DNA of 64,000 nt from Alteromonas mediterranea DE (GTDB lineage Bacteria; Pseudomonadota; Gammaproteobacteria; Enterobacterales; Alteromonadaceae), in the NCBI RefSeq assembly GCF_000020585.3, contig NC_011138.3, positions 717,914 to 781,913 of the forward strand, read 5' to 3'. Shown here piece after piece: positions 40,257 to 63,254 of the stretch. A program made the position numbers and the translations under genes. The notes below the pieces were generated by a model, which saw only the letters and a program-made list of their open reading frames with translations, had not been told where the DNA came from and did no database searches. Position 1 is the stretch's first letter, and every line of letters begins with the position of its first letter.

Positions 40257-41597
40257 CTACTTTCTCACTGCACTTTTTGTAGCAATGCTAACTATCTTGG
40301 CAGCAATGGCCGCAATAGTGGTATTTTCGCTCATGGCTTGTTTTTGTAGTCGGCGATATGCATTGTTTTCGCTTAGCCCAAACTGCTCCATTACTACCAG
40401 TTTTGCTCGACTTATCAGCTTTTGATCTTGTATTGCCCGCTTGGCTTCTTCAAGTTCGCGGCCCATGTCTTCGATATGTTGTGCTTGTGAACGCAGTAAA
40501 TCATAAAAAGAGCGGTGGGCAGATAAGGTTTTGGTTTGCTCATTAAGTGGCAGCGTTTTAAGCTCGTCGTCTTTACTATCTTCCGCTAAGCCCGGCATGC
40601 TGGGGTCGAACAATAGGGTGAGTGGCGAGCCATCGGTGGCGTGTTCATCGTTGAAGCGTTTAAGCAACTGTTGATGATTGGCCATTTCATTTTTTGCGTC
40701 GGCCACTTTAGTATTGGCTTGATGCAAAAGGGCTTCCGTGAGCGCGACTTCAATGGCCTGCATGGCATCCATGCGACGTGTCGCTACATCAAACCAAACT
40801 TCTGATATCTCACCAGCAATTGGGCTGCCGTCACCAAGTTGCGCAATCATGTTTCTAAGCTGCGCGATATCGATAGCGGCAGGGCTTTTATTTAACGTAT
40901 CCAAGGCGTCTTTGTGTGCTTTACAGCTAAACTCACAGAAAATATTGAAGTGATGTTCTTGGGCTTGCTGAAGGGCAGCAAGCTTTTCGCATAAACGCGC
41001 ATCAAAATGGGTTTCTGCAAAACCAATCGCCCCCCAAGCCCGTTCTTGCCCTGCGTATTCCTTCGCCTGCATAAAGTTGAATAACGCCACTAGCAATCTA
41101 GTAATAGTTGGGTCGCTTGCAATATCCGCCGCTTCAAAAATAACGGTAAGTAAACTGGCGACTAAACGGCTGTACGCGCGTGTCGACTCCAGTGGCGTTA
41201 GCTTCTGCTTACTCACTTGTTCTCTTAATCGAGGTAGGTAGTCTGTGGCCTGCATTGCAAGCGTAATGCTACTCAATAAACGCGGGTTGCCCGTGGTGAT
41301 CTCATCAGTCAGGTAGAGGGATTTTAACTGGCTTTTTAGCGTTGACTCTGCGTGTTCACTAGCAGCAACATATTGCATCCGCTCTGAGCGATATCGCTCG
41401 GCGTTTGACGCGAGAAAGATATTGCTGGCACCCCGTTCCTTTTGAAGTTCATGAATAAGTTCTCGCACTGCAATAACAATGCGGCAGTTACTCGATAACT
41501 GTTCAAGTACCGTAATCTCAGCGTGTTTAGCTGCAAGTAAAAAGCGCTTAGTCGCGTCGCTACACAGTGTAATGGTCGGTTCGGATTCATGAAGCAT
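40257..41597 (-). CDS. nasR: nitrate-responsive antiterminator NasR (NIT-ANTAR)
   Basis: A 446-residue cytoplasmic regulator. Residues about 35-285 form the helical nitrate/nitrite-sensing NIT domain, opening with the family signature IHELQKERGASNIFLAS. Residues about 375-432 form the ANTAR RNA-binding domain (KRAIQDQKLISRAKLVVMEQ in part; SENNAYRRLQKQAM). In Klebsiella, NasR binds nitrate and then the nasF leader RNA, preventing termination. Here two candidate leaders with matching hairpins are present at 44.4 and 54.3 kb. Its own upstream region has a sigma-54 type promoter and an NtrC-like palindrome, so it should be made under nitrogen limitation. Confidence 0.9.
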   Translation of the reverse strand: MLHESEPTITLCSDATKRFLLAAKHAEITVLEQLSSNCRIVIAVRELIHELQKERGASNIFLASNAERYRSERMQYVAASEHAESTLKSQLKSLYLTDEITTGNPRLLSSITLAMQATDYLPRLREQVSKQKLTPLESTRAYSRLVASLLTVIFEAADIASDPTITRLLVALFNFMQAKEYAGQERAWGAIGFAETHFDARLCEKLAALQQAQEHHFNIFCEFSCKAHKDALDTLNKSPAAIDIAQLRNMIAQLGDGSPIAGEISEVWFDVATRRMDAMQAIEVALTEALLHQANTKVADAKNEMANHQQLLKRFNDEHATDGSPLTLLFDPSMPGLAEDSKDDELKTLPLNEQTKTLSAHRSFYDLLRSQAQHIEDMGRELEEAKRAIQDQKLISRAKLVVMEQFGLSENNAYRRLQKQAMSENTTIAAIAAKIVSIATKSAVRK

Positions 41598-44199: not shown

Positions 44200-44237
44200 T
44201 GCACCAAGTGAACACAGGTTTGCGTTTGTTTGGTGCA
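44200..44237 (+). promoter_or_regulatory. pair of NtrC-like sites upstream of nirB
   Basis: Two 17-base sites compared with TGCACC-N5-GGTGCA: 44200-44216 (TGCACC with a poor right half, 8/12) and 44221-44237 (TGCGTT-N5-GGTGCA, 9/12). Centres are 21 bases apart, and 93 and 72 bases from the -24 element. Confidence 0.6.
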
Positions 44238-44300
44238 GCTTAGAAATAAAAATATTGCCTTTTTTATCTTAAATCTATTAAAAACAGCGTGTTACACGAT

Positions 44301-44315
44301 TGGCACTGAATTTGG
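44301..44315 (+). promoter_or_regulatory. candidate sigma-54 promoter of the nirBD-nasA operon
   Basis: TGGCACTGAATTTGG matches TGGCACG-N4-TTGC with correct spacing, missing only the G at position 7 and the final C. The predicted start is near 44327, giving a leader of about 180 bases. Confidence 0.65.
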
Positions 44316-44378
44316 ATAGTATTAAACGTAAAGTGTGTTTTAGTGATTTGTGTCAATCGCTGAAAATTGTGTGATTTA

Positions 44379-44435
44379 TAACACTCCGTAAAATGTGTTA
44401 GCTAGAATATGCTGAACTTAAGTGTCAGTACTAGC
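44379..44435 (+). other. two leader hairpins upstream of nirB
   Basis: TAACAC (44379-44384) pairs with GTGTTA (44395-44400) around a loop containing TCCG. Directly next, GCTAG (44401-44405) pairs with CTAGC (44431-44435), with inner TGCTGA/TCAGTA pairing. One may be the first stem of the two-stem ANTAR target. The motif ACTCCG (44383-44388) recurs in the nrtA leader. Confidence 0.45.
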
Positions 44436-44441
44436 AAAATA

Positions 44442-44453
44442 GGCAACGAAGCC
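44442..44453 (+). promoter_or_regulatory. ANTAR-type antiterminator hairpin in the nirB leader
   Basis: GGC-AACGAA-GCC: a stem with a six-base loop carrying A at position 1 and G at position 4, the stated hallmark of ANTAR RNA targets. Its 3' arm is the 5' arm of the following terminator, so the two folds exclude each other. The 13-base GGCAACGAAGCCC is identical in the nrtA leader. Confidence 0.7.
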
Positions 44454-44486
44454 CGCATCAACGAAAGTTGAAGCGGGCTTTTTTTT
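44449..44486 (+). terminator. leader terminator before nirB
   Basis: AAGCCCGC and GCGGGCTT pair, with the inner stem TCAAC/GTTGA capped by GAAA and an A-A mismatch, followed by eight T in all. It lies 23 bases before the nirB start, so it must be bypassed for expression. Confidence 0.9.
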
Positions 44487-44508
44487 GTCCCGAAAAAAGG
44501 GGAATACC

Positions 44509-47058
44509 ATGACTTCATTGGACTCAAAAACGCAAATTGTCGTCGTAGGCAACGGCATGGTGGGGCACCATTTTGTTGAACAGCTTCACCAAAGCGACGC
44601 CAATGTAGAAATAACCGTCTTATGCGGCGAGTCTCGCCTCGCGTACGACCGCGTTTACTTATCTTCGTTTTTTAGTGGCGCAAGTGCTGATGATTTAGCG
44701 CTTACCACCCCAGCACAGTATGCCCAGTGGGGCGTAAGTGTAGTGACCAATGCGTTGGTGACCGATATAGACCGTGACAACAAAAAAGTGACGACGTCAG
44801 AGGGGCAGGTATTTAGTTACGATAAACTTGTGCTTGCTACCGGCTCATATCCTTTCGTGCCGCCTATTCCCGGTAACGAGCAAGAGCACTGTTTGGTCTA
44901 CCGTACCATCGATGACTTACTTGCCATTGAGGCCTCGGCGGCGGTAAGTAGCGTGGGGGTGGTTGTCGGCGGCGGCCTGTTAGGCTTAGAAGCGGCGAAC
45001 GCACTTAAGCAAGCCGGCCTTGATACTCATGTCGTCGAGTTCGCGCCACAGCTAATGGCGGTTCAACTTGACCAAGCCGGTGGTAAAGTCCTTAAAGATA
45101 AAATTGAAGATTTGGGCGTGACTGTTCATACCCAAAAAGCGACACAAAGCATTGAAGCGGGAAATACCTGTCGCTATAAAATGGTGTTCGCCGATGGCAC
45201 CGAACTTGAAACCGACATGATCCTTTTTTCTGCGGGTATTCGCCCTTCGGATCAGCTTGGTAGGAAGTCAGCACTAACACTTGGCGAGCGCGGCGGTATT
45301 GTTATTGATAACCACTGTGTGACGTCTGATCCGAATATATACGCCGTAGGCGAGTGCGCGCTATGGGACAACAAAATTTTCGGCCTTGTTGCCCCCGGCT
45401 ATACTATGGCTCGCACTGCGGTAAGTCATCTAACCGGTGGTGATGCTGAGTTTTCAGGTGCCGATATGAGCACCAAGTTGAAGCTTATGGGGGTTGAAGT
45501 TGGCTCAATTGGTGATGCGCACGAACGTACTGAAGGGGCATTAAGTTATACCTACTTAAACCAACCTGAAGGCGTTTACAAAAAGCTTGTTGTTGATAGT
45601 GAACAAAAGAAAGTGCTGGGCGCGGTACTGGTAGGTGACACAAGCGATTACGATACGTTATTGCAGTATGCGCTTAACGCTATCGACCTTCCTGAGCATC
45701 CTGAAAGCCTTATTCTTCCGTCGTCGGATGCCGCTCCTGCTCTTGGCGCCGATGCGTTACCCGACACCGCGTCTATTTGTTCCTGCCTGAATGTAACAAA
45801 AGGCGATATTGTTTCAGCCATTGAAGGTGGCTGCTGTAGCGTAGCGGATGTGAAAGGTGAAACCAAAGCCAGTACAGGCTGTGGTGGCTGTGCAGCGCTA
45901 CTTAAAAACGTGGTGGACAGCGAGCTTGAAAAACGCGGCGTTGAAGTTTCAAAAGCCATTTGTGAGCACTTTAACTATACACGTCAAGAGCTCTTTCACA
46001 TTGTAAAAGTAAACGGTATTCGCACGTTTGATGATCTGCTAGAGCAGCATGGTGAAGGTTTAGGTTGCGAGATTTGTAAGCCCGCAGTGGGCTCTATTTT
46101 GGCATCAGTTTATAACGACTACATTCTAAAATCGGCCCACCTACCGTTACAAGATACTAACGATATCTACCTTGGCAACATGCAAAAAGACGGGACTTAT
46201 TCCGTTGTGCCACGGGTGCCGGGCGGAGAAATCACGCCAGAGAAATTGATTTTGTTAGGTGAAGTGGCGAAAGAGTACAACCTGTACACCAAAATAACCG
46301 GTGGGCAGCGTATCGATTTATTCGGCGCGCGTGTTGAACACCTTCCTGACATCTGGGAGAAGCTAGTAGCGGGGGGATTTGAAACCGGTCATGCGTATGC
46401 GAAAGCACTGCGCACTGTGAAGTCGTGCGTGGGAAGTACTTGGTGTCGCTATGGCGTACAAGACTCAGTTGGTACCGCTATCGATTTAGAAAATCGCTAT
46501 AAAGGCTTACGTGCACCGCACAAAATCAAATTTGCTGTATCAGGCTGTACCCGTGAATGTGCTGAGGCCCAAAGTAAAGACATTGGTGTTATTGCCACTG
46601 AGCAGGGCTGGAACTTGTATGTATGCGGTAACGGCGGTATGAAGCCCCGCCATGCCGACTTGTTTGCCACCGACTTAGATACCGAAACCCTTATCAAATA
46701 TATCGACCGCGTGTTGATGTTCTATGTGAAGACTGCCGATCGCCTTCAGCGTACTTCAGTGTGGATGGATAACCTAGAAGGCGGCTTAGCTTATCTTCAA
46801 GATGTGGTGATAAACGACGCCTTGGGCATTAACGACGAGCTAGAAGCGCAAATGGATACCGTGGTTGACGCGTATCAATGTGAGTGGAAAACCACTATCG
46901 AAGACCCTGAAGCGCGCAAGCGTTTCCGTCAGTTTGTAAACAGTAATGCAGGCGATACCAATATTCAGTTTGTTTCAGAGCGCGGCCAGGTTCGCCCTGC
47001 AACAGAAGCTGAAAAAGTGGCAGGGAAAGACCAGTTTATTCCAGTCGCTATGGTATAG
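44509..47058 (+). CDS. nirB: assimilatory nitrite reductase [NAD(P)H] large subunit NirB
   Basis: An 849-residue cytoplasmic enzyme reducing nitrite to ammonium. Order: FAD-binding VVVGNGMVG (residues 11-19), NAD-binding VGGGLLGLEAAN (near 155), a BFD-like [2Fe-2S] domain (CSC near 423, CGGC near 458), nitrite/sulfite reductase ferredoxin-like half-domain, and the siroheme/[4Fe-4S] cysteines C640, C646, C680 and C684 (CVGSTWC, SGCTREC). The ATG at 44509 follows AAGGGGA; an upstream start would lie in the terminator. It is the first gene of nirB-nirD-nasA-cobA-ybiB, controlled by a leader terminator. Confidence 0.95.
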   Translation: MTSLDSKTQIVVVGNGMVGHHFVEQLHQSDANVEITVLCGESRLAYDRVYLSSFFSGASADDLALTTPAQYAQWGVSVVTNALVTDIDRDNKKVTTSEGQVFSYDKLVLATGSYPFVPPIPGNEQEHCLVYRTIDDLLAIEASAAVSSVGVVVGGGLLGLEAANALKQAGLDTHVVEFAPQLMAVQLDQAGGKVLKDKIEDLGVTVHTQKATQSIEAGNTCRYKMVFADGTELETDMILFSAGIRPSDQLGRKSALTLGERGGIVIDNHCVTSDPNIYAVGECALWDNKIFGLVAPGYTMARTAVSHLTGGDAEFSGADMSTKLKLMGVEVGSIGDAHERTEGALSYTYLNQPEGVYKKLVVDSEQKKVLGAVLVGDTSDYDTLLQYALNAIDLPEHPESLILPSSDAAPALGADALPDTASICSCLNVTKGDIVSAIEGGCCSVADVKGETKASTGCGGCAALLKNVVDSELEKRGVEVSKAICEHFNYTRQELFHIVKVNGIRTFDDLLEQHGEGLGCEICKPAVGSILASVYNDYILKSAHLPLQDTNDIYLGNMQKDGTYSVVPRVPGGEITPEKLILLGEVAKEYNLYTKITGGQRIDLFGARVEHLPDIWEKLVAGGFETGHAYAKALRTVKSCVGSTWCRYGVQDSVGTAIDLENRYKGLRAPHKIKFAVSGCTRECAEAQSKDIGVIATEQGWNLYVCGNGGMKPRHADLFATDLDTETLIKYIDRVLMFYVKTADRLQRTSVWMDNLEGGLAYLQDVVINDALGINDELEAQMDTVVDAYQCEWKTTIEDPEARKRFRQFVNSNAGDTNIQFVSERGQVRPATEAEKVAGKDQFIPVAMV

Positions 47059-47094
47059 CGATTTAGTTATTAAAGAGCTTAGGAGGAACATTTG

Positions 47095-47466
47095 ATGTCA
47101 GCAGCGCCAAATCTTTTAGCTTCAGGACAAGATATTCAGCAATGGCACCTAGTGTGCGAAACACGGGACTTAGTAAAAAATAGCGGCGTTTGCGCCCTGG
47201 TAGAGTCTCGGCAAATCGCGATTTTTTGTTTATGTGTCAAAGGGGAAACCCAGGTTTTTGCGATAAGTAATTACGACCCCATTGGCAAGGCCAACGTGCT
47301 ATATCGCGGGCTTTTGGGGTCAATTGGCGGCGCCCCGGTAGTTGCGTCTCCTTTATACAAGGAGCATTACTTTTTAGAAAGCGGGCTATGTAAGGAACAC
47401 GATGATATATCGGTTACCACTTACCCAGTAAAAGTAGAAGGTGAAAAGGTTTTCATTGGCATTTAA
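47095..47466 (+). CDS. nirD: nitrite reductase small subunit NirD
   Basis: A 123-residue Rieske-fold partner of NirB. The fold is seen in GVCALVESRQIAIFCL, QVFAISNYDPIGKANVLYRG and ASPLYKEHYFLESGLC. As usual for NirD, the Cys/His pairs that bind the Rieske cluster are not in place, so it is structural rather than a redox carrier. The ATG at 47095 has AGGAGG eight bases before it; a TTG one codon upstream is less likely. Confidence 0.93.
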   Translation: MSAAPNLLASGQDIQQWHLVCETRDLVKNSGVCALVESRQIAIFCLCVKGETQVFAISNYDPIGKANVLYRGLLGSIGGAPVVASPLYKEHYFLESGLCKEHDDISVTTYPVKVEGEKVFIGI

Positions 47467-47524
47467 GCGGTACGCTGCACACAGAAGGCGTTGACAAAGC
47501 AGAGAAAACGAAAAAGGTAATGAT

Positions 47525-50353
47525 ATGAATATGGCTACTCCACAACCCGATATTATGTCTGAACAGTTAAGACAAACAACATGCCCTTATTGCGGCGTGG
47601 GTTGTGGCGTAGATATCAGTTGCAACGCAAGTAAGCGTGCCGTAACCCTGGACACTGTTAAGGGCACGCCCGAGCATCCCGCCAATTTTGGTAGGTTGTG
47701 CGTTAAAGGAACAAACCTGCTTGAAACGAACGGCCTTAATGGGCGTTTACTTCACCCAACCATGGCAGGTAAATCGGTGGATTGGGACACGGCCACCGAT
47801 GTGATTGCGGATAAGATCGCCTCTACTATTGCGCAGTATGGCGCGGATGCCGTTGCTTTTTACGTGTCAGGTCAACTACTGACCGAAGACTATTACATTG
47901 CCAACAAATTAATGAAAGGCTACATCGGCAGTGCCAATATTGATACTAACTCACGCCTTTGCATGTCGTCAGCCGTGGCTGCCTACAAGCGTGCATTTGG
48001 CGAAGACGTGGTGCCATGCGATTACGCAGATTTAGAAAGCACTGACTTACTTGTTATAACAGGGAGTAACACGGCGTGGGCACATCCTGTACTCTTTCAG
48101 CGTATTCAGCGTGCAAAGCTTAAAAACCCGCACATGAAGGTGGTGGTCATAGACCCACGCAAAACCGAAACCTGTACCATTGCCGACCTTCACCTAGCAA
48201 TAAAACCCGGCAGTGATGTGGCACTCTTTAATGGCCTGCTACGCTTTGCTAATAAGCAGGAAAGGATAGACAAGGCAAGCGTTGGAAGGTTTGCCGACGG
48301 TTTAGATGAAGCCTTAGAAAGTGCGAGCGCGTCGACGCTTAGCGAAGTCGCCAAGATTTGCGATGTCGACGCTAGCAGCGTGAAAACCTTTTATGAGATT
48401 TTTTGTGAAGCGACTCGGGCTATTACCTTCTATTCAATGGGGGTGAACCAATCGTCAGCAGGCGTAGATAAAGCGCAAGCCATTATAAACTGCCATTTAG
48501 CCACCGATTTAATTGCAAAAGAAGGCTGCGGGCCTTTCTCAATTACGGGCCAGCCGAATGCCATGGGAGGCCGTGAAGTAGGTGGGCTAGCAAATATGCT
48601 TGCCGCACATATGGACCTTGAAAACCTTGAGCATATCAACGCAGTAAAAACGTATTGGAACGCGCCAGTTATGCCTAAAGGGCAGGGGCTTAAAGCTGTT
48701 GACCTCTTTAACGCCATTGAAAGGGGGGAAGTAAAATTCGTTTGGATAATGGGCACTAACCCTGTAGTAAGTATGCCCAACCGCGGTCAAGTCGAGCGCG
48801 CACTATCAAAGTGCGACATGGTGGTGGTGTCTGACATCGTGGAATCTAACGACACATTGAAATACGCCCACATTGCCCTTCCGGCAACGGGATGGTCTGA
48901 AAAAGATGGAACGGTGACCAATTCAGAGCGCCGTATATCACGTCAGCGGGGTATCTTGCCTCCGCCAGGCTGTGCAAAACACGATTGGCAAATTATGTGT
49001 GACGTAGCGGCTAAAATGGGCTTTGCTGAGGCATTTAATTTTACCCATCCATCGCAAATTTTTTGCGAATACGCAGGGTTAACCGGTTATCAAAATAATG
49101 GGCAACGCCAGCTGGACCTATCGCCTTTACAAAATATTACTCAGGCGCAATATGATGCCATGTCGCCTTTACAGTGGCCATTTACAACATCTGATGAGTT
49201 GCAAGGTATGCAAGGGCTTAACAGCAAGCGACCCTTTGCCGATAAACAGTTCTCTACGCCTAACGGTAAAGCCAAGCTTATTCCTGTTGTATTTAAAGCA
49301 CCACAGCAACAAACGTCGAAGCTGTTCCCGTTTGTGGTAAACAGTGGGCGCGCCAGAGATCAATGGCATACCATGACTCGTACCGGCAAAGCAGCAAAGT
49401 TGCTAGCCCATACGTCTAATGCCAGCGTGCATGTAAGCCCTCATGATGCTAAAACGCTAGGCGCGAGGAATAAAGACTACGTGGCTTTGCATAGTGCGGC
49501 ATGTGTAGATGCCCCGGTTATCTATCCCGTTAAAATCGATGAAGACATGCGCAAAGGAGAAGTCTTCATTCCTATCCATTGGTCTGCTCAGTACGGCTCA
49601 CACTGCAAGTTGGGGTCACTTTACGCCAGTGCGGTAGACCCTATTTCAGGTCAACCCGAGTTAAAGCACGCTGCCGTTGCTATAGAACCTGTACGCTTTA
49701 CCACCTACGGCAAAGTTTTCGTAGCATCAATAGTGCAAAACGCGCAGCCCAGTGAATTTAACTTTCTCGATGAAGTCGCGCTACAGCATGCTTGCGACTA
49801 TTGGACGAAAACGCCCATTGAAGGTGCAGTATTGACAGCGAATACAAACCTGTCTGGTGATGCGTCAACGGTATTTAATATTGCATCGAACAAGGGCCGC
49901 CGAGCATTCACACAAGACGTGTTACCTCTTTTACCACAAAACACTGTGTTATTGCAGTTTCATCATCACACCTACTCAGTATGTATAGCCCTTGTAGACG
50001 ATAAGCTTTGCTTTGCGGCGTTTTTAGGTGATGAGCCAGAGCAGGAAGCCGCAGTAGACGCTAACGTTGGATGGTCAGTGCCTAATGCTTGGGTTGCCAG
50101 TCTGCTGAATACCTCTATTAGCCTTGAAACCCAGCGCAAGTTATTACGCACTCAAGTAGACGAGGCGTTTTTAAATGGCGATGTAGTGTGTAGTTGCTTC
50201 GAGGTGCGCGAGAAAACAATTAGTGACGCTATAGAAGGCGGTTGCTCCTCGGTAACGGAACTTGGCAAAAAGCTAAAATGCGGTACGAACTGTGGCTCGT
50301 GTAAGCCTGCACTATCACAACGAATTAATCAGCACGCATTGATAGGTGCTTAA
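47525..50353 (+). CDS. nasA: assimilatory nitrate reductase catalytic subunit NasA
   Basis: A 942-residue molybdopterin enzyme of the cytoplasm that reduces nitrate to nitrite. The N-terminal [4Fe-4S] motif is CPYCGVGC (C20, C23, C27) with the fourth cysteine in FGRLCVKG. C146 in NSRLCMSSA is the molybdenum ligand. Later MGTNPVVS, GWSEKDGTVTNSERR and the C-terminal cofactor-binding domain (SGRARDQWHTMTRTGK) follow. A BFD-like [2Fe-2S] domain closes the protein (VCSCFEVRE near 888, CGTNCGSC). No separate NasB-like electron donor gene is adjacent, so the donor is uncertain; NirB-type diaphorase or ferredoxin are options. Confidence 0.95.
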   Translation: MNMATPQPDIMSEQLRQTTCPYCGVGCGVDISCNASKRAVTLDTVKGTPEHPANFGRLCVKGTNLLETNGLNGRLLHPTMAGKSVDWDTATDVIADKIASTIAQYGADAVAFYVSGQLLTEDYYIANKLMKGYIGSANIDTNSRLCMSSAVAAYKRAFGEDVVPCDYADLESTDLLVITGSNTAWAHPVLFQRIQRAKLKNPHMKVVVIDPRKTETCTIADLHLAIKPGSDVALFNGLLRFANKQERIDKASVGRFADGLDEALESASASTLSEVAKICDVDASSVKTFYEIFCEATRAITFYSMGVNQSSAGVDKAQAIINCHLATDLIAKEGCGPFSITGQPNAMGGREVGGLANMLAAHMDLENLEHINAVKTYWNAPVMPKGQGLKAVDLFNAIERGEVKFVWIMGTNPVVSMPNRGQVERALSKCDMVVVSDIVESNDTLKYAHIALPATGWSEKDGTVTNSERRISRQRGILPPPGCAKHDWQIMCDVAAKMGFAEAFNFTHPSQIFCEYAGLTGYQNNGQRQLDLSPLQNITQAQYDAMSPLQWPFTTSDELQGMQGLNSKRPFADKQFSTPNGKAKLIPVVFKAPQQQTSKLFPFVVNSGRARDQWHTMTRTGKAAKLLAHTSNASVHVSPHDAKTLGARNKDYVALHSAACVDAPVIYPVKIDEDMRKGEVFIPIHWSAQYGSHCKLGSLYASAVDPISGQPELKHAAVAIEPVRFTTYGKVFVASIVQNAQPSEFNFLDEVALQHACDYWTKTPIEGAVLTANTNLSGDASTVFNIASNKGRRAFTQDVLPLLPQNTVLLQFHHHTYSVCIALVDDKLCFAAFLGDEPEQEAAVDANVGWSVPNAWVASLLNTSISLETQRKLLRTQVDEAFLNGDVVCSCFEVREKTISDAIEGGCSSVTELGKKLKCGTNCGSCKPALSQRINQHALIGA

Positions 50354-50389
50354 GTTATCTACATTCAAATTATTTAGGAGCGTTTATTC

Positions 50390-51331
50390 ATGTCATTAGC
50401 ATCTAGCTGGTCGTTACCTTTTTTACGCACCTTTTTTAAAGCCCGCGGATCAAACCTTAGCGTAGCTAAACGCAATACCCAGCACATAACCAAGAACAAT
50501 TCGACGGCGTCGCGTTTTTTGAGCGAATTCTCAACGCCTTCTCAGCGTAACGCTGGAAAGCGCGGCCAAGTATTTATTGTAGGCGCAGGCCCAGGAGATG
50601 CCGAGTTACTTACATTAAAGGCGCTTCGCCTCTTACAACAGGCAGACATAGTGCTGTTCGATGCCTTAGTGAGCGAAGATATACTGGCGTTAATCCCTCA
50701 AGCAGTGGCGAAAGAATATGTGGGTAAACGCTGTAAAAAGCACAGCTTCACCCAAGATGCTATTTGTAAGCGCGTAGTTGAACTCGCAGGCATGGGGCGC
50801 ACCGTCGTGCGTTTAAAAGGGGGCGACCCAGCGCTATTTGCAAGAACCTGCGAAGAAACTGATGCATTAACCAAAGCGGAAATTCCTTTCGCTATCGTGC
50901 CTGGTATTACCGCTGCATCGGGCGTATCTGCCTATACCGGAATACCCCTTACCGACAGGCGCTGCGCCCAATCGGTAAGCTTTATGACGGCCCACTTTAA
51001 AGATGCAGACCAATGGCCAGAAATGGCGTCAATGGCACAAAGCGTATTGAAACACACCATGGTGGTTTACATGGGGCTAAGTCGCCTAGAAGGGCTTTGC
51101 CGTGGGCTGGTTAATCACAACGTGCCACTCGCATGGCCTGTAGCAGCCATAGAAAATGCGACCACCCCTGGGCAGCGCATGATTACAGGAACGCTGGCTG
51201 ATATACATAGTAAAGTAAACGCAGCGAATTTAACGGGCCCGACGTTACTTATATTTGGAAAAGTGGTAGAGTCTCGTCAACAGGTTAATACACTTCTACT
51301 ACATTCATCCGAGCATGCAGCAACCATTTAG
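50390..51331 (+). CDS. cobA: uroporphyrinogen-III C-methyltransferase (SUMT)
   Basis: A 313-residue SAM-dependent enzyme making precorrin-2 for siroheme. Motifs: VFIVGAGPGDAELLTLKALR, VVRLKGGDPALFA, VPGITAASGVSAYTGIPLTDR and MTAHFKD. The first 60 residues are an unusual basic extension with no clear targeting signal. Its presence in the nitrite reductase operon fits a boost of siroheme supply. It lacks the dehydrogenase/ferrochelatase part, which must come from CysG at 6.9 kb. The last 17 bases overlap the next gene. Confidence 0.92.
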   Translation: MSLASSWSLPFLRTFFKARGSNLSVAKRNTQHITKNNSTASRFLSEFSTPSQRNAGKRGQVFIVGAGPGDAELLTLKALRLLQQADIVLFDALVSEDILALIPQAVAKEYVGKRCKKHSFTQDAICKRVVELAGMGRTVVRLKGGDPALFARTCEETDALTKAEIPFAIVPGITAASGVSAYTGIPLTDRRCAQSVSFMTAHFKDADQWPEMASMAQSVLKHTMVVYMGLSRLEGLCRGLVNHNVPLAWPVAAIENATTPGQRMITGTLADIHSKVNAANLTGPTLLIFGKVVESRQQVNTLLLHSSEHAATI

Positions 51332-52310
51332 CGAATACATAAAAATAATTGGTAAGGGTCAGAAAGGGGGGCGCAGCCTAACCCGAGAAGAGGCCTACCA
51401 TGCCATGAAAATGGTGTTGGCTAATGAAGTGACAGGCGATCAGCGCGGCGCTTTTCTCATGCTGCTGCGCACGCGAGAAGAAACCCCAGAAGAAGTCATT
51501 GGTTTTGTCGATGCCTGTAGAGAGTTAATCGAGCCCGAGGTGAAAACACTTACGCCTACCTTAGATATAGGGTGTTATGCAGGTAAACGCCGTCAACTAC
51601 CTTGGTATTTATTGGCCGTGGCCATATTGGCAAGAAACGGGTATTCAGTTATGCTTCACGGTGCCCACGAGCCAGGTTCTGGTCGCCTTTACGCGAGTAT
51701 CGCTTTACCCAAACTTGGCTTACCCGAAGTTAATAGTATTGCTCAGGCAAAACAGCAGTTGACTGAAAAGGGTGTCACTTACCTTGATTTGTCTTATCTT
51801 CTTCGCGCTTTGGACACTATTATTAAATTACGAGACGTCTTTGGATTACGATCGTGTGCTAATACTCTCGCTAGACTATTGAACCCTACAGCTGCCAAAT
51901 TTTGTGTTCAAGGGGTTTATCACATGCACCTTGACCATAAACACTGCCGCGTAAACGAAAACTATCCTTCGATTGATGCGCTCTGCTTTCGCGGTGATGG
52001 AGGTGATCCAGAAGTTAACGGTGAAAGAGAAACTGAGCTTTTTATTACCCGAAACGGGAAAACCGAAGAAGTTATAATGCCTGTGCTCGCTGATAAATGG
52101 GCGCTCAAAGACAAAGATATGAAGGTTGACGACATGCTTGACGTCTGGGCAGGTAAAGCAAATAGCCTTTATGGTGAGCAGGCTATCCTAAGTACATTAG
52201 CTAGCTATCTAGTACTTCTTAAAAATTGTGCCGTTACCGATGCCCTTACCCAAGCAAGGCAGCTTTGGGCTGAGCGCGATAAACAATCCCTGCCTTTTTT
52301 ATTTTCTTAA
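51315..52310 (+). CDS. ybiB: YbiB/TrpD2-like glycosyltransferase family 3 protein
   Basis: A 331-residue relative of anthranilate phosphoribosyltransferase. The N-terminal helical domain (REEAYHAMKMVLANEVTGDQRGAFLMLLRTREETPEE in parts) and the phosphoribosyltransferase-like core (SVMLHGAHEPGSGR; LRDVFGLRSCANTLARLLNP) are intact. The typical PRPP-binding motif of TrpD is altered. YbiB is known to bind nucleic acid rather than make tryptophan precursors, and it is often found with nitrate reductase genes. It overlaps cobA by 17 bases, so it belongs to the operon. Its role in nitrate use is unexplained. Confidence 0.85.
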   Translation: MQQPFSEYIKIIGKGQKGGRSLTREEAYHAMKMVLANEVTGDQRGAFLMLLRTREETPEEVIGFVDACRELIEPEVKTLTPTLDIGCYAGKRRQLPWYLLAVAILARNGYSVMLHGAHEPGSGRLYASIALPKLGLPEVNSIAQAKQQLTEKGVTYLDLSYLLRALDTIIKLRDVFGLRSCANTLARLLNPTAAKFCVQGVYHMHLDHKHCRVNENYPSIDALCFRGDGGDPEVNGERETELFITRNGKTEEVIMPVLADKWALKDKDMKVDDMLDVWAGKANSLYGEQAILSTLASYLVLLKNCAVTDALTQARQLWAERDKQSLPFLFS

Positions 52311-52494
52311 ATTTTTAATGCTCTTCAAATCCTCTGCTATCTTTAATCAAGACCAAAAAAAATTAGCCTATTGTTTCAAAATGACTGCGCTTACCGAGGC
52401 ATGCTACGGGCATGCCTGTAGTGGTGATTTGCCTTTAGTGTAAATAGATGCAGACGTTAAAAATGCGTGAAACGAGGTCCATTAGGAGCGCAGA

Positions 52495-53811
52495 ATGTTT
52501 TTCAAAAATAAAGAGTTGATAGCCGAGAAGCAACGTTTGGAAAAGGAAATCGAGGCATATCATACCGTTCAGGAAGAATTACGGGAAGAAATGTTGTATG
52601 TCGAATTAAGTGCAGAAGGCCGAATTCGCGCAGTGAATGACCTCTATTCCCAAGCTACTGGCTATTCACTCAGCGAATTAGAAGGCAAGAGTCTAGACAG
52701 CCTAATGAGTCAAAATGCGTTAAGAAAGCCAGCTGCACAGGATTTACTTGGCGCCATCAAAACTCACCGCCACTGGCATGGCGCGATAAGCTTTTTCGAT
52801 GCTAAAGGCCAAGAGGTTTGGGTGAGGGGGATTATTCAGCCTATTGATGATGCCTTTGGAAATGTGAAGTACATCGCCTTTTATATGGCAGAGCAAACGC
52901 GAAATATCACTCACAGCAATGAATTGAGAGACATGATTGCTGCGCTTCATCGTTCTTCTGCTGTTATCGAATTTAAATTAGACGGCACTATCATCACGGC
53001 GAACGAGAACTTTTTAAAAGGGACCGGCTATACCTTAGAACAAGTTCAAGGTAAGCATCACCGCATCTTCTGTACCGAAGAAGAAGCAAATTCTGAGGAA
53101 TATAAACAGTTTTGGCGGGGTTTAGCAAAAGGACAGTTAGAATCGGGGCGTTACAAGCGTATAGATAGTGCTGGCAATGAAGTGTGGTTAGAAGCGTCAT
53201 ACAACCCAATTAGAAATGAAGACGGAGAACTGTATAAAGTGGTGAAATTTGCCACTGTGATTACAGAGCAAATGCAGCGCGAATTTGCTATTTCTGAAGC
53301 CGCGAATGTCGCTTTTAATATTTCACAGGAAACAGGTGAACAGGCGCGCAAAGGTAATGAAGTACTCGATTCCACAGTGAATGCGATGAACGAACTTACC
53401 GCTCAAATGGGTAATGCTAGCGCAGGTATTAAGGATCTTGACGAGCAATCACAAAAAGTCGCCGACCTTGTAAAAAGCATTAGCGGTATTGCCGATCAGA
53501 CTAACTTATTAGCATTAAACGCCGCTATTGAAGCGGCACGGGCCGGCGACCAAGGTCGTGGGTTTGCCGTGGTGGCTGATGAGGTTAGGCAACTTGCCTC
53601 GCGAACAAGCAGTGCTACAGAAGAAATTGTCAATGTGGTAGTAGAAAATAGAAAGCTAACTGAAAATGCAGTGCAGTTGATTGAAGCTGGGCAAGAAAAA
53701 GCCCGAGAAGCGTTAGAGTATTCAACTCAGTCTGGTCAAGCGATGGGCGAAATACAAAGTGGCGCGAACGAGGTGGTAAACGCCATAGGCCAATTCACTA
53801 AGCGTTTGTAA
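52495..53811 (+). CDS. soluble PAS-PAS methyl-accepting chemotaxis protein
   Basis: A 438-residue cytoplasmic chemoreceptor without membrane segments. A short coiled coil (residues 1-33) leads to two PAS domains (about 34-145 and 150-265; [22 protein letters not shown]), each with a PAC-like tail, then a short signalling domain with the conserved hairpin tip [20 protein letters not shown]. Cofactor-binding residues (haem or flavin) cannot be fixed. It lies between the nasA operon and the nrt operon; a redox or nitrate taxis role is possible but inferred from position. A GGAG ribosome site precedes the ATG. Confidence 0.88.
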
Positions 53812-53866
53812 GGTAGTCTCCCTTTAACAAGGCCAACACATGATTCAGCGGTGGACGCGTATCACA

Positions 53867-53903
53867 CGCACCACCGTTGAACAGTACCCCCTTTTTTGGT
53901 GCA
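53867..53903 (+). promoter_or_regulatory. pair of NtrC-like sites upstream of nrtA
   Basis: Site 53867-53883 (left half CGCACC, 8/12 to TGCACC-N5-GGTGCA) and site 53887-53903 (right half GGTGCA complete, left half poor). Centres are 20 bases apart, and 104 and 84 bases from the -24 element, the same layout as upstream of nirB. Confidence 0.5.
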
Positions 53904-53978
53904 CTTAGCTCCCCGTAATTCTTGAATGTCCTTCCTTGTTTTTTGCTAAATATCATATAAATCAGATGTTTATATTTG

Positions 53979-53993
53979 TGGCACAAAGGCTGC
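53979..53993 (+). promoter_or_regulatory. sigma-54 promoter of the nrt operon
   Basis: TGGCACAAAGGCTGC followed by T matches TGGCACG-N4-TTGCW except positions 7 and 12, with exact doublet spacing. The predicted start is near 54005, giving a leader of about 360 bases. Confidence 0.75.
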
Positions 53994-54075
53994 TATTAAT
54001 CTGGTGCAATAACGATGCTGCTATTAAAGAGTAGTGTTTGCATACACAGTGCAACGACATTGTGGAATGCACAAC

Positions 54076-54153
54076 ATTTGCCATAGGGTAAATAAACAGG
54101 ATTCAGCGGAGAACGGTAGGGAAGCGATATCATCTCCGGTAACTATGGCAAGT
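54076..54153 (+). other. nested inverted repeat in the nrtA leader (possible structured RNA)
   Basis: The outer arms TTGCCATAG (54078-54086) and CTATGGCAA (54143-54151) pair perfectly and extend to 11 pairs with a wobble. Inside, CGGAGA (54107-54112) pairs with TCTCCG (54133-54138). It lies between the sigma-54 promoter and the leader terminator. It matches no riboswitch class that I recognise. Confidence 0.55.
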
Positions 54154-54263
54154 GAATAATAATAAGAACAGAGTGGTTTTATAAGCTAAAGCTTTTGATA
54201 AACCTCCCTTAAAGATGAGGTGTGTGAGCGGGAATTCCTGACTTACCATTAACAACTTGATGC

Positions 54264-54290
54264 GTTTGTAAGAACTCCGATATTACAAAC
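54264..54290 (+). other. leader hairpin upstream of the nrtA antiterminator element
   Basis: GTTTGTAA (54264-54271) pairs with TTACAAAC (54283-54290) around an 11-base loop containing ACTCCG, the same hexamer found in the nirB leader. Two bases separate it from the GGC-AACGAA-GCC element, so it is a candidate first stem of the ANTAR target. Confidence 0.55.
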
Positions 54291-54292
54291 AC

Positions 54293-54304
54293 GGCAACGA
54301 AGCC
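54293..54304 (+). promoter_or_regulatory. ANTAR-type antiterminator hairpin in the nrtA leader
   Basis: GGC-AACGAA-GCC, identical over 13 bases with the nirB leader element, again overlapping the 5' arm of a terminator. The hexaloop has A at position 1 and G at position 4. Confidence 0.7.
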
Positions 54305-54350
54305 CACCATGCTCGACGGTATTACGTCGATAGCTGGTGGGTTTTTTTTT
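54303..54350 (+). terminator. leader terminator before nrtA
   Basis: CCCACCA (54303-54309) pairs with TGGTGGG (54335-54341), continued by GCT/AGC and CGACG/CGTCG around GTATTA, followed by nine T. It lies 17 bases before the nrtA start. Confidence 0.9.
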
Positions 54351-57896: not shown

Positions 57897-59117
57897 ATGA
57901 ACTCGTCACGAAACTTTGGAATGAAAATACTCGCTGCCTCTGTCATTACGCTGATAGGTACAAGCGCCATGGCCGATGATATTCACACTGCGCTAAGCGA
58001 CGCAACTGCGTGGGCCGATTTGAACTTGCGTTATGAGTCTGTAGAGCAAGATAATGCACTAGAAGATGCCAGCGCATTAACGCTGCGCACGCGATTAGGC
58101 TTTAGTTCGGGCAGCGTTAATGGCTTTTCCTTTACCGCAGAGGTTGAAGATAGTCGTATCGTATTAGGCCAAGATGAATTTACTGTGGGCCCAACGGGCT
58201 TTAACGTGGGCGAATACTCGGTTATTGCTGACCCCGAAACAACTGAAGTCGACCAAGCGTTTATTCAATATAAAGCGGATAACTTCACTGCAAAGGTAGG
58301 TCGTCAAGTTATTACTTTAGACGACCATCGCTTTGTGGGTCACGTTGGCTGGCGACAAGACCGCCAAACCTTTGATGCAGTGAGTGCAAAGTATGCTGCA
58401 TCAGAGAATTTATCGCTTTTCTACAGCTACCTTTATAAACGCAATCGCATCTTTGCCGAAGCGGCAGATTTGGACTCTAACGACCATATCTTACACGCCA
58501 CCTACACCTCTAAAATAGGTAAGTTCGTGGGTTATGCGTACTTACTCGAAATCGATAGTGATACTGATAATGCACTCGATACTTATGGCGTCAGTTACGA
58601 CGGGAAAACGAAAGGTGAAAAGGTTAACTGGGCGTATGGGGCTGAGTTTGCCACTCAGTCAAGTGAATCGGGCGCTGGTGAAACCGCGACGGATTTTGAT
58701 GCGTCATATCTTAATGCCTATTTAGCTGCCAGCTTTTCTGGCGTAACGGCTAAAGTTGATTACGAGATTCTGGGTTCAGATGACGGCCAATATGGGTTCT
58801 CGACACCGCTGGCCACGTTGCATAAATTCAATGGTTGGACCGATCAATTCCTAGGTACACCTGCGCAGGGGCTAAAAGACCTCAAGTTTTCCCTATCAGG
58901 TGGCCTTGCTGGTGGTAAGTGGCTATTGGCCTACCACGACTTCACTGCCGATGACAGTAGCAACGGGGTAGACGATTTAGGTAGCGAAATTAATGTTCAA
59001 TATACGAAGAAATTTGCAGGTAAATATAACTTTGGCATCAAGTACGGTACTTATGATGCAGGCGATATTAAAGTAGACGCGAACCGCTTCTGGATGTGGG
59101 TGGGGACACGTTTTTAA
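57897..59117 (+). CDS. outer membrane porin, alginate_exp family
   Basis: A 406-residue beta-barrel protein with signal peptide (SAMA, residues 23-26) and alternating aromatic/polar strands ending WMWVGTRF. TLRTRLGFSSG, AKVGRQVITLDDHRFVGHVGWRQ (in parts) and FDAVSAKYA are alginate-export family features, including the basic residues that line anion-favouring pores in that family. It follows nrtC by 130 bases with no terminator seen, so it is probably co-transcribed and may admit nitrate across the outer membrane. Substrate is inferred. Confidence 0.8.
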   Translation: MNSSRNFGMKILAASVITLIGTSAMADDIHTALSDATAWADLNLRYESVEQDNALEDASALTLRTRLGFSSGSVNGFSFTAEVEDSRIVLGQDEFTVGPTGFNVGEYSVIADPETTEVDQAFIQYKADNFTAKVGRQVITLDDHRFVGHVGWRQDRQTFDAVSAKYAASENLSLFYSYLYKRNRIFAEAADLDSNDHILHATYTSKIGKFVGYAYLLEIDSDTDNALDTYGVSYDGKTKGEKVNWAYGAEFATQSSESGAGETATDFDASYLNAYLAASFSGVTAKVDYEILGSDDGQYGFSTPLATLHKFNGWTDQFLGTPAQGLKDLKFSLSGGLAGGKWLLAYHDFTADDSSNGVDDLGSEINVQYTKKFAGKYNFGIKYGTYDAGDIKVDANRFWMWVGTRF

Positions 59118-60940: not shown

Positions 60941-62863
60941 CTACATGCTGTAGTTAACTGAAAGGAGCGCCCGGCGCTCTTGACCGGCGTAGCCCACAAT
61001 GTCTTCATAGTCGGTATCAAAGGCATTATCGACCTTTAGTGAAACCTGCCATTTAGCATCAATCTGGTAACTAAGGTTGACCGTTGCCAGCGTGTAGGCC
61101 GACAGCGCTAGTGTCTGCGATGGCTCAGGGAACGGCGGGAAGAAGGTATCATAGTGGCTACCCGTATAAGCCAGCTTCGTGTACAAGCTGAATGTATCTG
61201 TTCCAAAGTCTGTGGTATAGGTGAGTGAGCCTTGATGACGCGCACGGCGAAGTTCTGTGTTGGTAATGCCATTATCTGTTTGCTCTGCGTCTAAATAGCT
61301 GTAAGCAGCAGTAATGTCACCATAGCCACTGTTCCAGTTAAGCTCTACGTCTACCCCTTCACGAGCGCTTTCGCCGTCAATGTTGTCGGCGCTAAATGCG
61401 CCAGCGTCTGGGACGAAAACGAAACCGTTTATCTCATCCTCTAAGTCGGCAGTATAGACGCTAATCTGACCCGTAACCTTCTTCCAATTAGCTTTAACAC
61501 CTACTTCCCACTCTTCACTAGTTTCAGGTTCTAGGTTGGGGTTGCCAACGAAGCTGGCTGGGAAAAAGCCAAAGCGCTCTGTAAAAGTAGGCGTTTTAAC
61601 CGCGCTTCCATAGCTGGTAAACAGCGTGTAGTGGTTATTTAATTGCCAGCTTAACCCGCCGCGATAGCTAAGTGCATTATCAAACTCGCTGTTGTTGTCA
61701 TAACGGGCGCTTAACGTAGCCGTTAAAGACTCGGTTAATTGACCGTTAGATTCTGCAAAAACGCTGTACGTATTGTCGTGCTGCTTTTGATTAGGATCGC
61801 CAAAATTGATGGGGCCGCGCTGGTCGAACAGTCGCTGTAGGTATTCAACGCCGCCAGCAAAATCCCAATTTTTAATGGCGTAAAAGCTTGTCCAATTTAA
61901 CTCAATACGCTCCCCGGTTGTACCACCGGCGTCAACGCCTGATTCGGTATTGTCGTTCTCGTCTTTTCGGTAGTGTGCACTTAATGCAGAACGATATTGC
62001 GTATTGTTTGGGGCAAACTCCCAGCGTAATTTAGCGCTAAGTTGTGCGCCGTCGGTCACATTATCGGTGTCAGTTGGTAAGCCGGTAACAGCAAAGTCAG
62101 TGCCGTCGTAGTCGTTTTCATAGTGCACGGTACGCAAATTAGCAATTAGCGTATGCTCATTAGATACAGCGTAGTTAAGGTTAAGACCAGCGGTCATGTT
62201 ATCGTAACCGTCATCTTCATTGCCTACGCGCGAAACATTATCGCCATCGGTACGGATATAGCTAGCATAGGCAGACACACCCACATTATCGCTTTGAGAG
62301 CGGGCATTCATACTGCCTTGTAGCGTGCCTTGTGTCCCTGCCGCCGCAGAGAAATCAACGTGTGACGTATTGGCCGCAAATTGGCCTGACTTTGTTGTAA
62401 TGCTCAGCACGCCACCAATTGCACCACTTCCCCAGCGGGCGCTTTGAGGGCCGCGAAGCAGTTCAATACGCACCACATTGGCGCTGGTTAAGTGGGCCAA
62501 GTCAACCAGGCTGCCTTGGCCTATATCGTTAGATACAACGCCATCAATTAATATAAGTAAATGGTTGGTTTCGCTTCCGCGAACGCGCACTTCAGCTAAG
62601 CCGCCTGGGCTACCTGACTGCGCTAGGCTAACGCCCGGCAAACCGCGAATAAGATCGGTCAGCTGCAGTGCTCCCGAAGCTTGTATGTCGCTTTCGGTGA
62701 GTACTGAAACAGAGCCGGGAAGTTTCGTTAACGATATAGGCAAACGCGTTCCGGTTACGGTTAGCGTTTCAATATCTTGGTTGAGTGTTTGAGAGTAAGC
62801 AGGTGTGCTTAAGCACGAGAGAACCGCAGCACTTAGCGCTGCTTTATTAAAATATGTACGCAT
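60941..62863 (-). CDS. btuB: TonB-dependent vitamin B12 receptor BtuB
   Basis: A 640-residue outer membrane cobalamin receptor. It has a signal peptide (AYSQ, near residue 24), TonB box ETLTVTG, plug (SVSVLTESDIQASGALQLTD; EVRVRGSETNHLLILIDGV; ELLRGPQSARWGSGAIGGVL, each part separate) and a C-terminal barrel ending LLSVNYSM. The specific assignment to B12 rests on the BtuB-like plug and on the cobalamin riboswitch just upstream. The ribosome site is weak (AGAAAA), consistent with control of translation by the upstream RNA. Confidence 0.93.
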   Translation of the reverse strand: MRTYFNKAALSAAVLSCLSTPAYSQTLNQDIETLTVTGTRLPISLTKLPGSVSVLTESDIQASGALQLTDLIRGLPGVSLAQSGSPGGLAEVRVRGSETNHLLILIDGVVSNDIGQGSLVDLAHLTSANVVRIELLRGPQSARWGSGAIGGVLSITTKSGQFAANTSHVDFSAAAGTQGTLQGSMNARSQSDNVGVSAYASYIRTDGDNVSRVGNEDDGYDNMTAGLNLNYAVSNEHTLIANLRTVHYENDYDGTDFAVTGLPTDTDNVTDGAQLSAKLRWEFAPNNTQYRSALSAHYRKDENDNTESGVDAGGTTGERIELNWTSFYAIKNWDFAGGVEYLQRLFDQRGPINFGDPNQKQHDNTYSVFAESNGQLTESLTATLSARYDNNSEFDNALSYRGGLSWQLNNHYTLFTSYGSAVKTPTFTERFGFFPASFVGNPNLEPETSEEWEVGVKANWKKVTGQISVYTADLEDEINGFVFVPDAGAFSADNIDGESAREGVDVELNWNSGYGDITAAYSYLDAEQTDNGITNTELRRARHQGSLTYTTDFGTDTFSLYTKLAYTGSHYDTFFPPFPEPSQTLALSAYTLATVNLSYQIDAKWQVSLKVDNAFDTDYEDIVGYAGQERRALLSVNYSM

Positions 62864-62962
62864 GGTTTTTTATATTTTCTTTGATGCACTCCGCCCGAGC
62901 ACATGTTTAAGGGAAGCGTTCTATTTGCTGATTTTGAGGCTACAAGCAAACGACACCGTGAG

Positions 62963-63199
62963 GCACAGGCCGGTATCCGGGCTTACTCACCATCACATTT
63001 AAAGTGATAGCTCTTTTGCCTTCCCATCTAATAGTGTTTGCTAGCGCAAAAGCGCGCTCACTTACAAAAGACAGTGGCGTATGAAAAGAAAACGACATAG
63101 CGTTGAGTTTACCGTTGCGGGGGCAGCATCAGTTTTCCACTGATTTCCCGTTTAACCCTAGTTATCGTCGCCATCGGTTGATAAACAAGGGCACCTACG
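62963..63199 (-). promoter_or_regulatory. cobalamin riboswitch upstream of btuB
   Basis: On the minus strand the conserved elements occur in order: AGGTGCC, AAACGGGAA, GCTGCCCCCGCAACGGTAA, the B12-box core GCCACTG, TGGGAAGG and AGTAAGCCCGGATACCGGCC. This is the standard adenosylcobalamin riboswitch layout. About 100 bases remain to the btuB start, where TTTGCT/AGCAAA can pair as part of the expression platform. Confidence 0.92.
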
Positions 63200-63254
63200 C
63201 GTGGGCGATTATATAGAAGTTAAAAATTGATAGCGAATACAGTTTTTTATACCT

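What the first reader, a model, noticed from the sequence alone, without database searches (positions are those of the whole stretch)
44442..54350. Two operons share an identical 13-base ANTAR-type antiterminator element
GGCAACGAAGCCC occurs at 44442-44454 and 54293-54305. In both places it can fold as GGC-AACGAA-GCC, with A at loop position 1 and G at position 4, and in both its 3' arm is the 5' arm of an intrinsic terminator placed 15-25 bases before the first gene (nirB, nrtA). A NIT-ANTAR protein gene (nasR) is 3 kb away. This is direct sequence evidence for nitrate-controlled antitermination of both reduction and uptake operons by one regulator. The Klebsiella precedent is known; the two-target layout here is worth documenting.
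Basis: partly seen in the sequence, partly recalled or inferred. Interest (0 to 1): 0.78.

Follow-up and report, generated by a model that had tools for sequence, protein, structure and literature searches.

The report
One-loop nitrate antiterminators in Alteromonas
In the marine bacterium Alteromonas one nitrate-sensing protein probably switches on both nitrate uptake and nitrate reduction by refolding a small RNA loop in front of each operon, and these RNA switches seem to lack one of the two loops that textbook examples require.

Summary
GGCAACGAAGCCC lies at 44442 and 54293; its 12-base core occurs only there in the 4.48 Mb genome. Each copy can fold as GGC-AACGAA-GCC, and its 3' arm begins a terminator ending 22 (nirB) or 17 (nrtA) bases before the first gene. 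The genome, an Alteromonas, has one ANTAR protein, the NIT-ANTAR NasR. The P2-plus-terminator pattern occurs in 47 of 59 genus genomes, the same 47 with a NasR match. The two-target layout is thus genus-wide, and multi-target ANTAR regulons are in print.

The upstream hairpin P1 lacks the A1/G4 hexaloop: a C:G-closed one occurs in 2 of 90 leaders of NasR genomes (1.5 expected) against 26 of 68 leaders of same-family genomes with a NasT-type regulator. Alteromonadales NasR also lacks two arginines that Klebsiella NasR needs for RNA binding: R340 in 56 of 56, R366 in 54 of 56 sequences. I read this as antitermination through one hexaloop, which bears on a question left open in 2022. It is unproven without binding and read-through assays.

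The parts
40257..41597 (-). nasR: NIT-ANTAR regulator, the only ANTAR protein found in the genome; residues 392 and 418 (Klebsiella R340, R366) are both Q
   Evidence: PF08376 and PF03861 over their cut-offs; one PF03861 match in the genome; mapping by the printed alignment to 4akk
44301..44316 (+). sigma54-like promoter site TGGCACTGAATTTGGA before nirB (GG instead of GC at -12)
   Evidence: similar TGGC-anchored site 80-165 nt before P2 is the best in 55 of 55 nirB leaders (no shuffle control); consensus recalled
44401..44435 (+). P1 hairpin of the nirB leader, outer stem GCTAG/CTAGC; no A1/G4 hexaloop
44442..44453 (+). P2 hairpin GGC-AACGAA-GCC of the nirB leader
44451..44486 (+). intrinsic terminator with U-tract; its first three bases are the 3' arm of P2
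44509..47058 (+). nirB, nitrite reductase large subunit
   Evidence: TIGR02374 over cut-off
47092..47466 (+). nirD-like, Rieske domain
   Evidence: PF13806
47525..50353 (+). nasA-like assimilatory nitrate reductase (below the NCBIfam cut-offs)
   Evidence: PF00384
50390..51331 (+). tetrapyrrole methylase (cobA-like)
   Evidence: PF00590
53979..53994 (+). sigma54-like promoter site TGGCACAAAGGCTGCT before nrtA
   Evidence: site scoring 9 or more of 12 in 25 of 39 nrtA leaders; consensus recalled
54264..54290 (+). P1 hairpin of the nrtA leader, GTTTGTAA/TTACAAAC with an 11-nt loop; ends 2 nt before P2
54293..54304 (+). P2 hairpin GGC-AACGAA-GCC of the nrtA leader
54302..54350 (+). intrinsic terminator with U-tract; its first three bases are the 3' arm of P2
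54368..55777 (+). nrtA-like nitrate-binding protein
   Evidence: PF13379 327 bits
55813..56862 (+). nrtB-like permease
   Evidence: PF00528
56879..57766 (+). nrtC/D-like ATPase
   Evidence: PF00005

Best explanation
Both operons are transcribed from promoters that look sigma54-dependent. By default the leader folds into an intrinsic terminator just before nirB or nrtA. With nitrate or nitrite, the NIT domain of NasR frees its ANTAR domains; NasR captures the three-base-pair hairpin GGC-AACGAA-GCC as it leaves RNA polymerase, which takes three bases from the base of the terminator, and polymerase reads on. Unlike the published ANTAR targets, the leader offers NasR one recognisable hexaloop only. 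The hairpin upstream of it (P1) is kept as a plain stem close to P2, where it may stack, insulate or pause rather than be read by sequence, and the RNA-facing surface of this NasR has changed in step. Shown: the elements, the co-occurrence, the lack of the P1 hexaloop consensus, the lack of the two arginines. Inferred: nitrate response, binding to P2, read-through, the role of P1.
For: One ANTAR protein in the genome; P2-terminator pattern in the same 47 of 59 genus genomes as NasR, reversed control 0; A1 and G4 in 94 of 94 P2 loops found without requiring them; forcing P2 costs 10.7 and 7.5 kcal/mol against the terminator, so a protein would have to hold it; canonical P1 in 2 of 90 leaders of NasR genomes against 26 of 68 of NasT-type genomes, 1.5 and 1.2 expected, 2 of 57 against 20 of 56 after thinning, and 0 of 90 further upstream; P1-region folding beyond shuffles; both arginines lacking in nearly all Alteromonadales NasR and present in 7 of 7 distant NasR.
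Against: No binding or expression data. P2 alone binds Klebsiella NasR about twelvefold more weakly than P1-P2. With any closing pair, A1/G4 hexaloops occur upstream in 17 of 90 NasR leaders (11.7 expected). One Alteromonas nrtA leader (L237) has a perfect canonical P1. 42 of 68 NasT-type leaders also lack it, so the loss is not specific to NasR, and R340 is kept in only 11 of 18 NasT-type proteins. Co-occurrence in the genus is confounded by loss of the whole pathway. NasR leaders are mostly one genus (81 of 90), so counts are not independent. P1 in deeper-clade nirB leaders is hardly stable.
Confidence: 0.7

Rival explanations
1. NasR does read P1, but by a diverged code: the altered ANTAR surface recognises other loops or the shape of the stem, so the element is still a two-site target.
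For: The P1 stem is kept at a near-constant distance from P2 (2-3 nt in 28 of 35 nrtA, 5-8 nt in 29 of 41 nirB leaders), and the ANTAR surface has changed. Loops around ACTCCG recur in both leaders of the window's clade.
Against: P1 loops vary freely in length (3-14 nt) and sequence across the genus, while P2 loops are fixed at A1 and G4.
Confidence: 0.17
2. A canonical P1 is present but hidden, in an alternative or weaker fold or further upstream.
For: A weak TAA-AATGTG-TTA hexaloop occurs in nirB leaders of the window's clade; L237 has a canonical P1.
Against: C:G-closed A1/G4 hexaloops are at chance level within 60 nt (2 of 90) and 0 of 90 at -120 to -61, while the same scan finds P1 in NasT-type leaders (26 of 68) and in distant NasR leaders. 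The weak hexaloop breaks in the relative L040.
Confidence: 0.06
3. The terminators are ordinary ones ending the upstream genes, or attenuators worked by something other than NasR.
For: Each terminator lies downstream of another gene on the same strand (SulP-like, PAS-MCP); no expression data are at hand.
Against: The terminators lie 17-22 bases before the operon's first gene and downstream of conserved promoter-like sites; P2 loops are invariant at A1 and G4; pattern and NasR co-occur in 47 of 47 genomes.
Confidence: 0.05

Closest known systems
Klebsiella oxytoca NasR and the nasF leader
   Same: NIT-ANTAR regulator, P2 hairpin sharing bases with an intrinsic terminator, A1/G4 hexaloop with C:G closing pair, nitrate assimilation operon
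   Different: nasF needs a second hexaloop in P1, and its NasR has R340 and R366, each needed for RNA binding; here P1 has no such loop and both residues are Q
EutV and the eut leaders of Enterococcus faecalis
   Same: ANTAR dimer, P2 hairpin overlapping a terminator, several targets under one regulator
   Different: receiver-ANTAR under a kinase; both hexaloops required in vivo
NasS-NasT with antiterminated nas/nirB leaders (Paracoccus, Pseudomonas)
   Same: same pathway and ANTAR output; the title of a cited 2012 paper reports antitermination within a nirBD-PA1779-cobA operon of P. aeruginosa, a similar gene set (reference list only)
   Different: nitrate is sensed by a separate NasS (passages of PMC3795266); about 200-aa ANTAR proteins of this kind occur in relatives of the family, not in this genome
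NmPAL (PAS-ANTAR-LOV) and its hairpin aptamers
   Same: ANTAR binding to one short hairpin; motif 3 has a six-nucleotide loop (passages of PMC10966536)
   Different: found by in vitro selection and genome mining; natural target unknown; light, not nitrate

Membership tests
ANTAR two-hairpin target RNA (Ramesh 2012) | P2 hairpin of at least 3 bp with hexaloop A1, G4 | tested here: met
   both window leaders; 94 of 94 loops found
ANTAR two-hairpin target RNA (Ramesh 2012) | P2 shares bases with an intrinsic terminator | tested here: met
ANTAR two-hairpin target RNA (Ramesh 2012) | P1 hairpin with hexaloop A1, G4 | tested here: not met
   no C:G-closed one in either window leader; 2 of 90 NasR leaders, 1.5 expected
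ANTAR two-hairpin target RNA (Ramesh 2012) | two stem-loops at constrained spacing (5-12 nt in eut leaders) | tested here: inconclusive
   a stem is present 2-3 nt (28 of 35 nrtA) or 5-8 nt (29 of 41 nirB) before P2, but without the loop
ANTAR two-hairpin target RNA (Ramesh 2012) | bound by the ANTAR protein | not testable with these tools
   needs protein and RNA
NasR (NIT-ANTAR one-component antiterminator) | NIT domain followed by ANTAR domain | tested here: met
   4akk E 1.7e-35
NasR (NIT-ANTAR one-component antiterminator) | encoded beside nitrate assimilation genes | tested here: met
NasR (NIT-ANTAR one-component antiterminator) | residues that Klebsiella NasR needs for RNA binding, R340 and R366 | tested here: not met
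   Q392 and Q418; aromatic 362 (Y), K347 and N373 are kept
NasR (NIT-ANTAR one-component antiterminator) | activated by nitrate or nitrite | not testable with these tools
   needs assay

The most novel reading that the evidence does not exclude
Alteromonadaceae hold natural transcription antiterminators that a dimeric ANTAR protein works through a single hexaloop under the time limit of a moving polymerase. The recruitment role proposed for the P1 hexaloop is dispensable or passed to a plain stem, the NasR RNA-binding surface (R340 and R366 to Q) has co-evolved with that loss, and NasT and NasR have been exchanged for one another on the same RNA element within the family.
Probability: 0.45. 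Interest if true: 0.7.

Novelty: new variant of a known kind. Interest (0 to 1): 0.58.

Why it matters
The EutV-RNA structure paper of 2022 (PMC8934654; abstract, three results sections or parts and the Discussion read) found that a dimer contacts one hexaloop at a time, asked why both are nevertheless required, proposed P1 as a recruitment hairpin, and allowed single-hexaloop sites where the time limit of a transcribing polymerase is absent. The Alteromonas leaders look like single-hexaloop sites that overlap terminators, so they put that model to a direct test. A search that demands two hexaloops would not count them, so ANTAR regulons may be undercounted. They also concern how marine Alteromonas switches nitrate use on.

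Tried and rejected
Rfam at gathering thresholds names no ANTAR element in the window; I built no covariance model and used explicit motif scans with shuffles instead. One search, a looser family-wide pattern, matched 102 of 196 genomes, some plainly without a stem. I kept by eye the 55 genomes in its printed list with a match bearing GCCC and GGG[C/T]; all 55 are among the 95 ANTAR-positive genomes. The printed list was truncated, so 55 is a lower bound, and one looser match with a terminator-like stem is in a genome (G556, 88% complete) where no ANTAR was found. One search, looser still on the own genome, added three places without a terminator stem; its control gave 4. The idea that the second AACGAA inside the nirB terminator loop is the missing hexaloop was dropped: it lies on a CAAC/GTTG stem with a GAAA loop and is not shared by all clades. 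One search's positive controls are not uniform: a second leader of L153 has P2 but no C:G-closed A1/G4 P1, and no nrtA, nirB or nasA was found in L151 and L152, so their leaders were not examined. The search for NasR with Alteromonas and nitrate listed nothing on this regulation among 20 of 24 papers shown; the passages seen of PMC12388587, PMC12021255 and PMC4899447 do not mention NasR.

Rows dropped before counts: L146 (NasR interrupted by a TGA) and L161 (no ANTAR in the stretch read) from the NasR residue counts; L253 and L259 from the NasT-type residue counts (18 of 20 counted, the anchor pattern did not fit them); matches whose stem failed a pairing test, and repeats of the same 60 nt. 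L047 and L136 are the same genome and both stand in the residue counts. L048 and L066 (Paraglaciecola, regulator not determined) are in the 76 leaders and the 55 loci but not in the 90. In one search nirB and nrtA were told apart by order in the locus.
Full report
WHAT IS THERE. The 13-mer GGCAACGAAGCCC lies at 44442-44454 and 54293-54305; its 12-base core occurs nowhere else in the genome of 4,480,937 bases (reversed control 1). The genome is an Alteromonas: NasR of the unnamed relative G044 is 95% identical, and the contig bearing it has the same length as a contig of Alteromonas sp. IB21. Behind the first copy come nirB, a nirD-like gene, a nasA-like gene and a cobA-like gene; behind the second come nrtA-, nrtB- and nrtC-like genes. 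Between them lies a PAS-chemoreceptor gene. The NIT-ANTAR gene at 40257-41597 holds the only ANTAR domain found in the genome.

THE SWITCH. Each copy can form a 3-bp hairpin with hexaloop AACGAA closed by C:G. Its 3' arm GCC starts a strong terminator (-27.3 and -29.6 kcal/mol, z about -6). Forcing the hairpin costs 10.7 and 7.5 kcal/mol, so the default is termination and a protein would have to hold the hairpin. The simple terminator scan lists neither. Sigma54-like sites lie upstream: the best TGGC-anchored site is 80-165 nt before P2 in 55 of 55 nirB leaders (scores 8-10 of 12, no shuffle control), and a site scoring 9 or more of 12 is found before 25 of 39 nrtA leaders. The promoter consensus is recalled.

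MORE THAN CHANCE. A pattern for P2 plus terminator occurs in 47 of 59 Alteromonas genomes, the same 47 that have a NasR match, with no reversed match in any. One of the 47 NasR matches is a fragment at a contig edge (G053) and one is interrupted by a stop codon (G045). In the 47, 38 have two copies, 2 have one and 7 have three; most third copies lie elsewhere and look unrelated. The 12 genomes without NasR also lack nasA, so this is loss of a pathway as much as of a regulator. G019 has NasR and both leaders but no close NasA. When P2 is sought only as GGC-N6-GCC with a T-run, it is found before nirB in 55 of 55 loci and before nrtA in 39 of 39 where nrtA was found, and all 94 loops have A1 and G4. 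In 196 genomes of the family, 95 have an ANTAR match, one each except G527 with a second below the cut-off: either NIT-ANTAR (open frames of 417-488 aa) or, in nearly all the rest, a protein with an open frame of 199-267 aa. Five of the short kind were tested and all five have a receiver-like front; I call them NasT-type, a recalled name, and did not look for NasS. All 55 genomes with a strict match in the printed part are among the 95.

Published ANTAR targets have two hairpins, both with A1/G4 hexaloops (PMC3369931, passages and section 10 part 1; PMC3369936, part 1 of 2 of the text; PMC7496416, passages and sections 8 and 9). In the Klebsiella nasF leader the P1 stem and the P1 loop residues A1 and G4 are essential, and P2 alone binds NasR at about 12 uM against 1 uM for both. 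Here P1 is a plain hairpin. Among 90 distinct leaders from NasR genomes of the family, 2 have a C:G-closed A1/G4 hexaloop within 60 nt upstream (1.5 expected from shuffles); among 68 leaders from NasT-type genomes, 26 do (1.2 expected). With any closing pair the counts are 17 of 90 (11.7 expected) and 36 of 68 (10.3 expected). Thinned to below 70% identity the C:G counts are 2 of 57 and 20 of 56. By genus, 1 of 5 NasR genera and 14 of 16 NasT genera have at least one; in the one genus with leaders from both, 0 of 3 and 3 of 5. Further up, at -120 to -61, there are 0 of 90 and 6 of 68 (1.4 and 1.0 expected). The scan can see P1: it finds it in leaders of distant NasR genomes (L147-L150, and one of two leaders of L153), and finds three hexaloops in four Burkholderiales leaders (L088, L089, L095, L104). 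Against a simple story: 42 of 68 NasT-type leaders also lack a canonical P1, one Alteromonas nrtA leader (L237) has a perfect one, and 81 of the 90 NasR leaders are from one genus, so the counts are not independent.

THE P1 STEM IS KEPT. The 40 nt before P2 fold better than shuffles: mean z -3.10 over 35 nrtA leaders (control window -0.86, itself below zero) and -1.32 over 41 nirB leaders (control 0.19). The hairpin ends 2-3 nt before P2 in 28 of 35 nrtA leaders and 5-8 nt before P2 in 29 of 41 nirB leaders; its loop length and sequence vary widely. Counted covariation within the close nrtA clade is slight: of eight P1 pairs six never vary, one varies on one side and one is compensated. In several deeper-clade nirB leaders P1 is hardly stable.

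THE PROTEIN DIFFERS TOO. In Klebsiella NasR, R340A and R366A lose RNA binding. In the EutV-RNA structure the equivalents Arg142 and Arg168 (mapping mine) bond G4 of P2 and a loop ribose. In the window these residues are Q392 and Q418. R340 is lacking in 56 of 56 and R366 in 54 of 56 Alteromonadales NasR counted (one genome counted twice), and both are present in 7 of 7 distant NasR; NasT-type proteins have R366 in 18 of 18 counted but R340 in only 11 of 18. A canonical P1 was seen for five of those seven distant NasR. The G4-stacking aromatic is Y in 45 of 46 Alteromonas NasR, and K347 is kept in 46 of 46. The partners of the two arginines in the autoinhibitory interface differ in the window as well: E191 is R and D201 is Q.

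HOW IT MOST LIKELY WORKS. NasR with nitrate catches P2 as it emerges and shortens the terminator from below; P1 is a structural neighbour, not a second recognition site. This departs from the recruitment-hairpin model of 2022, whose authors asked why both hairpins are required and allowed single-hexaloop sites where the time limit of transcription is absent. Whether P1 is read in another way is the main rival.

COMPARISON AND NOVELTY. It works like the Klebsiella nasF system but fails the two-hairpin definition in one tested feature. Multi-operon ANTAR regulons and antitermination within a nirBD-cobA operon of Pseudomonas (title in a reference list only) are known, so the layout is not new. 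A nasA mutant of A. macleodii cannot grow on nitrate (passage of PMC12021255). Nine paper searches in an open-access library listed no report of natural one-hexaloop terminator leaders or of this regulation in Alteromonas; PMC8934654 itself mentions single hexaloops outside terminators. Subscription papers are mostly missing from that library, so absence in print is not shown.

Noticed in passing
L170, L171, L210-L212 (NasT-type) and L155, L223, L224 (NasR), one genus: Within the family, and within one genus, the ANTAR regulator is either NIT-ANTAR or a receiver-like ANTAR protein while the P2-terminator element stays; this looks like exchange of regulators on one RNA element.
   Followed up: partly
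L088, L089, L095, L104: Leaders in Herbaspirillum, Janthinobacterium and a Rugamonas MAG hold three C:G-closed A1/G4 hexaloops in a row, the last in a terminator.
   Followed up: no
window 44381-44399 and 54274-54279: ACTCCG recurs in an upstream hairpin of the nirB leader and in the P1 loop of the nrtA leader in the window's clade; unexplained.
   Followed up: no
window 44200-44238: Widely spaced inverted repeat TGCACCAA...TTTGGTGCA upstream of the nirB promoter-like site, resembling separated NtrC half-sites (recalled).
   Followed up: no
window 52495-53811: A PAS-methyl-accepting chemotaxis gene sits between the two operons here and in most Alteromonas loci fetched; possibly nitrate taxis.
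   Followed up: no
window 57897-59117: An alginate-export-like barrel protein gene follows the nrt genes; possibly an outer-membrane pore for the same pathway.
   Followed up: no
window 62951-63213 (-): Cobalamin riboswitch (RF00174, 90.4 bits) before a TonB-dependent receptor gene at 60941-62863.
   Followed up: no
L141 (G019): This Alteromonas genome has NasR and both leaders but no NasA match at E 1e-100.
   Followed up: no
L146 (G045): nasR is interrupted by one TGA while both leaders keep P2 and terminator.
   Followed up: no
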